A stretch of DNA of 64,000 nt from Cyclobacteriaceae bacterium (GTDB lineage: Bacteria; Bacteroidota; Bacteroidia; Cytophagales; Cyclobacteriaceae): the NCBI GenBank assembly GCA_958296015.1, contig CATQIH010000001.1, positions 124,001-188,000 of the forward strand, written 5' to 3'. Below the pieces are notes generated by a model. The model was not told the origin of the DNA, did not search any database, and was given only the letters and a program-made list of their open reading frames with translations. Both the position numbers and the translations under genes were made by a program. Shown one piece after another: positions 22,967 through 23,315 of the stretch (position 1 is the first letter of the stretch; each line of letters opens with the position of its first letter).

Positions 22967-23007
22967 TGTTGAAAGGGCTTCTTAAACTGAAACTTTATGA
23001 AGTAAAC

Positions 23008-23109
23008 TATACTACGGTACATTTGGCTTAAAGTGGGCTGTGAGGACACAGCCCACGGCCTTCGCGCCTCGGTTTGTGTCTCCACAAACCGAAACTGTAC
23101 CGTAGTATA
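23008..23109 (-). mobile_element. MITE-like element copy B (102 bp)
   Basis: Reverse complement identical to copy A; perfect 9-bp TSD GAAGTAAAC (22999-23007 / 23110-23118). Confidence 0.95.
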
Positions 23110-23315
23110 GAAGTAAACATTAACTGGGCGGCATCAACCAATGAAAACGTGGACATCACAATAGTAAGCTCCAAAGGAGAAACAGTTTACAGATATTCCT
23201 TTGAAAAGGAAGCCAATTACTTGTCAAGACATCAGGATTAAAAGCAGGTGTATATATTTTCACGTTAAAAGGCAGCAAAGATATTATAAAGAAAAAACTA
23301 ATCATCAACCCATAA
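23110..23315 (+). pseudogene. Remnant of a T9SS C-terminal sorting domain (frameshifted)
   Basis: EVNINWAASTNENVDITIVSSKGETVYRYSFEKE, then after a frame change LLVKTSGLKAGVYIFTLKGSKDIIKKKLIINP*. Confidence 0.75.

What the first reader, a model, noticed from the sequence alone, without database searches (positions are those of the whole stretch)
22999..23118. Family of 102-bp MITE-like elements with 14-bp TIRs and 9-bp target-site duplications
Seen directly: copies at 8612-8713, 23008-23109 (inverted), 40175-40276 and 56499-56600 are identical over 102 bp by eye. All have perfect 14-bp TIRs (TATACTACGGTACA/TGTACCGTAGTATA). Each is flanked by a different 9-bp direct repeat: ATCGTCCAT/ATCGCCCAT, GAAGTAAAC x2, GGTTAAAAG x2, GCTGTATTC x2. 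Established: TIRs plus fixed-length TSDs are the hallmark of DDE-transposase transposition, and non-autonomous short forms are MITEs. Inference: the identity indicates recent spread. No matching transposase is in this window, so mobilisation would be in trans.
Basis: partly seen in the sequence, partly recalled or inferred. Interest (0 to 1): 0.92.

Follow-up and report, generated by a model that had tools for sequence, protein, structure and literature searches.

The report
IS4-type MITE carrying paired REP palindromes
The repeat is a real 102-base "hitch-hiking" transposable element that has recently spread through this Bacteroidota genome using the ends of an IS4-family insertion sequence, and its interior is made of two palindromes of a kind otherwise spread by an unrelated transposase, so two classes of mobile DNA seem to have merged in one element.

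Summary
Four identical 102-bp copies lie in the window with perfect 14-bp TIRs and 9-bp target duplications (one with a single mismatch). The genome holds 16 such copies and about 52 family members in all, 64-232 bp long. Three of the 16 have paralogous empty sites carrying a single target 9-mer. Both copies in this genome are broken; an intact one, also with a 9-bp duplication, is in Botryobacter ruber. Insertions share a symmetric target, TTAT-N9-ATAA.

What it did not see: the interior is two inverted hairpins that match stand-alone REP palindromes. In relatives those palindromes flank REP-associated tyrosine transposase (RAYT) genes (both sides of 9 of 13 close RAYT loci; 0 of 37 other Y1 loci). 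The element is best read as IS4-type ends around a REP doublet. A second genus in the same family carries the same architecture. I found no covariation evidence for an RNA function. A new MITE family is a new member of a known kind; the REP interior makes it a new variant.

The parts
8612..8713 (-). 102-bp MITE copy, identical to the other three; TSD ATCGTCCAT/ATCGCCCAT
23008..23109 (+). 102-bp MITE copy (the focal one); TSD GAAGTAAAC on both sides
40175..40276 (-). 102-bp MITE copy; TSD GGTTAAAAG on both sides
56499..56600 (-). 102-bp MITE copy; TSD GCTGTATTC on both sides
23008..23021 (+). left 14-bp TIR TATACTACGGTACA, identical to the ends of the IS4-family IS
23096..23109 (-). right 14-bp TIR (perfect inverted copy)
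22999..23007 (.). left 9-bp target duplication GAAGTAAAC
23110..23118 (.). right 9-bp target duplication GAAGTAAAC
23033..23056 (-). hairpin arm 1, GTGGGCTGTG-AGGA-CACAGCCCAC: REP-like palindrome in minus orientation (purine loop)
23070..23091 (+). hairpin arm 2, CGGTTTGTG-TCTC-CACAAACCG: REP-like palindrome in plus orientation (pyrimidine loop)
23057..23069 (.). spacer between the two REP-like arms (GGCCTTCGCGCCT); may form a 3-bp mini-hairpin
31315..31420 (-). older, decayed member of the same family; TSD TAATACTAC/CAGTACTAC (7 of 9)
56256..56362 (+). older, decayed member of the same family; TSD TTGATTTTC/TTAGTTTTC (7 of 9)

Best explanation
A non-autonomous transposable element (MITE). Its ends come from an IS4-family insertion sequence and its interior is an inverted pair of RAYT-type REP palindromes. 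An IS4-type DDE transposase supplied in trans binds the 14-bp TIRs, cuts the element out and inserts it at a symmetric AT-rich site (TTAT-N9-ATAA, often starting G and ending C inside), duplicating the central 9 bp. SHOWN: the TIRs, 9-bp duplications, empty sites, target preference, a cognate IS with the same ends, and arms that match REPs flanking RAYT genes in relatives. INFERRED: that this IS's transposase moved it; that the arms descend from REPs rather than converging on them; and that the recent burst used a source copy since broken or missing from the assembly.
For: 16 copies at 99-100% identity, each with its own 9-bp duplication. About 52 distinct family members in G000 and 10 in G160. 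Duplication length exactly 9. Three empty paralogous sites with one target copy and no gap at the junction, plus one MITE nested in an older MITE. A 1213-bp IS with identical TIRs at C26:83976-85188 (TSD ATCGAGCAC) and C11:14109-15321. Its protein matches NF033591 IS4 transposase and PF01609, with D99, D163, E273 and Y266-R269-E273-K280. An intact 1190-bp relative in Botryobacter ruber has the same TIRs and TSD GAATTTTTA. Symmetric target over 36 sites (0 of 2000 resamples of the inner 9 bp as informative). REP arms: 45 stand-alone palindromes with the same core; both flanks of 9 of 13 close RAYT loci against 0 of 37 other Y1 loci; in the window only the eight MITE arms match, and none in shuffles; RAYTs hit NF047646.
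Against: Both resident IS copies have a disrupted transposase frame (14-nt insertion plus one extra nucleotide, stop before the catalytic E), so no functional enzyme was found in the assembly. The C11 IS copy lacks a duplication. RAYT hits score below the NF047646 cut-off (61 and 75 against 80 bits). G000 itself has no close RAYT. Hairpin pairing shows no covariation. The 5' tag is CCC, not the GTAG type described for gammaproteobacterial REPs (PMC2817692).
Confidence: 0.86

Rival explanations
1. Plain IS4-family MITE: an internal-deletion derivative whose hairpin arms arose by chance or from IS sequence, with no relation to REPs.
For: TIRs, duplications and cognate IS are sufficient to explain mobility. 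About 25 bp at one end resembles the G000 IS right end.
Against: Neither arm occurs in the G000 or Botryobacter IS. Both arms match the REP consensus at 7 of 8 stem positions with the same loop type, and those REPs flank RAYT genes in related genomes that lack this TIR.
Confidence: 0.12
2. The element is primarily a structured RNA or regulatory element (TIR stem plus two hairpins) whose fold is under selection, with mobility secondary.
For: Very stable predicted fold, -57 to -61 kcal/mol, z about -10. 15 of 16 young copies do not interrupt an ORF. Same architecture in two genera.
Against: No covariation beyond shuffles, and old copies lose the fold. No Rfam match. The fold follows from TIRs plus REP palindromes. 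Extragenic bias is also expected from purifying selection and an AT-rich target.
Confidence: 0.05
3. The repeat spreads by RAYT or recombination rather than by a DDE transposase, as a REPIN does.
For: Arms are REP-like and inverted.
Against: Perfect TIRs identical to a DDE IS and exact 9-bp duplications with a fixed target are the mark of a DDE enzyme. RAYT-type ssDNA transposition is not known to make target duplications (own knowledge). G000 has no close RAYT.
Confidence: 0.03

Closest known systems
IS4 family of insertion sequences (PMC2266710)
   Same: DDE transposase with a full YREK motif, D-D spacing 64 and D-E spacing 110, single ORF in the intact copy, 1.2 kb, 9-bp duplication as in subgroup IS10 (1200-1350 bp, 9 bp).
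   Different: Ends TATACTACGG do not fit the published end signature of any subgroup (IS10 5'-CT, IS50 5'-CW, IS4Sa 5'-CA). The NCBIfam IS4 score (126-134 bits) is below the equivalog cut-off of 152. Target TTAT-N9-ATAA.
RAYT-associated REP palindromes and BIMEs (PMC2817692), REPINs (PMC3116915)
   Same: Arms share the core of palindromes that flank RAYT genes in inverted orientation. Stand-alone copies form alternating arrays (for example G000 C3:73001-73272).
   Different: Here the doublet sits inside DDE-type TIRs, moves with 9-bp duplications, and its tags face inwards. No close RAYT in this genome.
Bacterial MITEs such as Correia/NEMIS and RUP (IS630-derived), and MITECca01 of Cardinium (PMC9769881)
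   Same: Short, non-coding, TIR-bounded, multicopy, mostly intergenic, mobilised in trans.
   Different: IS4-derived with a 9-bp duplication; unrelated TIRs; interior of REP palindromes.
Porphyromonas gingivalis MITE with internal minisatellite (PMC4596501)
   Same: A Bacteroidota MITE whose interior is itself repetitive DNA.
   Different: There the interior repeat is a minisatellite; here it is an inverted REP doublet.

Membership tests
MITE (non-autonomous DDE element) | Short, non-coding, perfect TIRs, fixed-length target duplication | tested here: met
   102 bp, 14-bp TIRs, 9-bp duplications, too short for a transposase
MITE (non-autonomous DDE element) | TIRs shared with an autonomous element | tested here: met
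   1213-bp IS in G000 and intact 1190-bp IS in Botryobacter ruber
MITE (non-autonomous DDE element) | Empty sites with a single target copy | tested here: met
   three paralogous empty sites
IS4 family (for the partner IS) | DDE with Y(2)R(3)E(6)K signature | tested here: met
   Y266, R269, E273, K280 in the read-through G000 protein; conserved in B. ruber
IS4 family (for the partner IS) | Target duplication of about one helix turn | tested here: met
   9 bp for the C26 and B. ruber copies
IS4 family (for the partner IS) | Single uninterrupted transposase ORF | tested here: inconclusive
   intact in B. ruber; disrupted in both G000 copies
IS10 subgroup of IS4 | 5'-CT ends, 9-bp duplication, 1200-1350 bp | tested here: not met
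   duplication fits and length is about right (1190-1213 bp), but ends are 5'-TA (PMC2266710)
REP/RAYT system (for the arms) | Palindrome flanks a RAYT gene on both sides | tested here: met
   9 of 13 close RAYT loci, 0 of 37 other Y1 loci; met in relatives, not in G000
REP/RAYT system (for the arms) | Conserved GTAG/GTGG head next to the palindrome | tested here: not met
   tag is CCC at the 5' side
REP/RAYT system (for the arms) | Cognate RAYT in the same genome | tested here: not met
   G000 has only distant Y1/RAYT genes (about 31% identity); G160 has a 52% one
IS630-type MITEs (Correia, RUP) | 2-bp TA target duplication | tested here: not met
   duplication is 9 bp
Structured RNA family | Rfam match or covarying pairs | tested here: not met

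The most novel reading that the evidence does not exclude
A DDE transposon and a RAYT/REP system have merged: IS4-type ends captured a REP doublet, and this chimaera now spreads REP palindromes through genomes that lack the cognate RAYT. REPs would then have a second, RAYT-independent route of dispersal and possibly two transposases acting on one element.
Probability: 0.35. Interest if true: 0.72.

Novelty: new variant of a known kind. Interest (0 to 1): 0.5.

Why it matters
Bacterial REPs and MITEs are usually treated as products of separate machineries: HUH tyrosine transposases for REPs, DDE transposases for most MITEs. An element with DDE ends and a REP interior, present in two genera with young and old copies, offers a testable case of one class hitch-hiking on the other and could help explain REPs in genomes that have lost their RAYT. 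The sharp TTAT-N9-ATAA target also gives a clean readout for transposition assays.

Tried and rejected
Structured-RNA reading: no Rfam hit and no covariation. tRNA disruption at 56499: the flank resembled a D-arm, but ARAGORN finds no tRNA in the window or in the joined flanks. Phage carriage: one viral contig has a lone TIR 17-mer without a partner, which a scan of that size could give by chance. Plasmid carriage of the partner: only IS4 transposases below 60% identity overall, 28-33% for the best places. Programmed frameshift of the G000 transposase: rejected because it would need two compensating shifts, and the B. ruber gene is one open frame. First scan of named genomes with one protein found nothing; the two-sequence alignment found B. 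ruber. A RAYT as neighbour of REPs in G000: none of the 12 Y1 loci fetched from G000 has these palindromes nearby. L104 palindromes in G000 may be decayed MITEs, so I give them no weight as independent REPs.

Full report
OBSERVATION. The four 102-bp copies are identical and sit where stated. The 14-bp TIR is exact at all eight ends. Flanking 9-mers are as reported, the first with one mismatch.

GENOME-WIDE. The window lies in a 5.9-Mb, 66-contig draft (G000). BLAST finds 11 copies identical to the window copies (the window's four among them) and five more at 99% (C at the outer base of one TIR and TTAGAG instead of TTAAAG); each has its own 9-bp duplication. Older relatives with the same ends and 9-bp duplications range from 64 to 232 bp. 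A covariance model finds 52 distinct places (counted). Over 33 elements (the IS left out) the duplication is exactly 9 bp. Three of the 16 have paralogous regions elsewhere in the genome without the element: the joined flanks align across the junction with one copy of the 9-mer and no gap (L002/L017, L013/L124, L014/L070). One older MITE (L067) is interrupted by a younger one with its own duplication, CTGTAGGAC. The copies are therefore insertions, not ancestral sequence.

PARTNER. Two places in G000 carry the same TIRs 1213 bp apart. They encode a transposase of the IS4 family (NF033591, PF01609) with D99, D163, E273 and the YREK spacing. The C26 copy has TSD ATCGAGCAC; the C11 copy has none. 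Both copies carry the same lesion: relative to the intact gene, 14 extra GC-rich nucleotides and one extra nucleotide further on, with a stop between (compared). An intact relative lies in Botryobacter ruber (L159:2931-4120): 68% protein identity, 1190 bp, identical TIRs, TSD GAATTTTTA, one open frame. Degenerate orthologous copies with the same left TIR are in G151 and G203. No functional cognate transposase was found in the G000 assembly, so the recent burst (11 identical copies) must have used a source now broken, lost or unassembled. That last step is inference.

TARGET. Aligning 36 empty-target reconstructions gives a symmetric preference TTAT-[G T N T W A N A C]-ATAA. For the inner nine positions, 0 of 2000 resamplings of flanking DNA reach the observed information. 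The 102-bp copies and the other elements, taken separately, show the same outer T/A and inner G/C preferences. That fits one enzyme type acting throughout. Fifteen of the 16 young copies do not interrupt an ORF.

DISTRIBUTION. The TIR is absent from nearly all of 398 genomes sampled from the same family, including the same-genus G001. G160, another genus of the family, has ten members with the same two arms, similar spacers, the same TIR and (where recent) 9-bp duplications. Its two congeners tested have none, and neither does B. ruber. The distribution is patchy, as expected for horizontally acquired mobile DNA.

INTERIOR. Between the TIRs lie two hairpins, GTGGGCTGTG-AGGA-CACAGCCCAC and CGGTTTGTG-TCTC-CACAAACCG, in inverted orientation judged by their purine and pyrimidine loops. 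The predicted fold is very stable, but pairing shows no covariation beyond shuffles, so I claim no RNA function. The same core palindrome occurs on its own, without the TIR, in several genomes of the family and order (pattern present in 14 of 61 genomes, G000 included) and in alternating arrays in G000 itself. In relatives these palindromes flank RAYT-like genes. Among the 13 closest homologues of the G034 gene (itself included), nine have such palindromes on both sides and eleven on at least one; among 37 other Y1 genes none has both and one has one. NCBIfam names them REP-associated tyrosine transposases, slightly below its cut-off. Nunvar et al. (PMC2817692) define RAYTs by flanking inverted REPs. 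In the window the only matches to this palindrome class are the eight MITE arms, and shuffled sequence gives none. I conclude that the arms are REP palindromes, probably captured as a head-to-head pair. Homology rather than convergence is inference, at about 0.8.

LONGER MEMBERS. Older copies have GC-rich extensions inside the REP loops (for example GGACCGGGCCACGGCGGCACGGGGTGCCCCG), the same in G000 and G160. The short 102-bp form may be a derivative that lost them. Which form came first is not settled.

COMPARISON. The partner fits the IS4 family by motif and duplication length (PMC2266710) but matches no published subgroup by its ends. The MITE differs from IS630-type MITEs in duplication length. 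I did not find a described DDE MITE with a REP interior in the papers searched. That library holds open-licence papers only, and ISfinder was not available, so novelty is provisional.

VERDICT. As a MITE it is ordinary; the REP interior, the sharp target and the second-genus family raise it to a new variant worth a specialist's attention.

Noticed in passing
G034:C1:930545-931345 (L212) and 12 other loci L213-L224: A Bacteroidota RAYT clade whose flanking REPs differ between lineages (GGTCTGTG, GGTCTGTC, GGTTCGTG, GTTTGTG stems); the GGTYTGTG palindromes carry a 5' CCC tag instead of GTAG.
   Followed up: partly
G000:C26:83976-85188 and C11:14109-15321: Both IS copies share a 14-nt GC-rich insertion in the transposase (CCACCGCGGCGCGG) that resembles (12 of 14) the GC-rich module CCACGGCGGCACGG in the REP loops of older MITEs.
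   Followed up: partly
G000:C3:73001-73272 (L101): Regular array of six GGTCTGTG palindromes in alternating orientation, spaced 48-52 bp, without TIRs (BIME-like).
   Followed up: partly
G000:C46:31786-31913 (L074): An older MITE copy appears inserted in a Y1-transposase reading frame.
   Followed up: no
window 20237-25492: Two neighbouring genes share a 97% identical 300-nt stretch and 141-nt repeats in their C-terminal parts; the focal MITE lies between them in what looks like a remnant C-terminal sorting-domain frame.
   Followed up: partly
G000:C20:362389-362889 (L239): A different RAYT-like gene with its own flanking palindrome family, GGATTCAGT-loop-ACTGAATCC.
   Followed up: no
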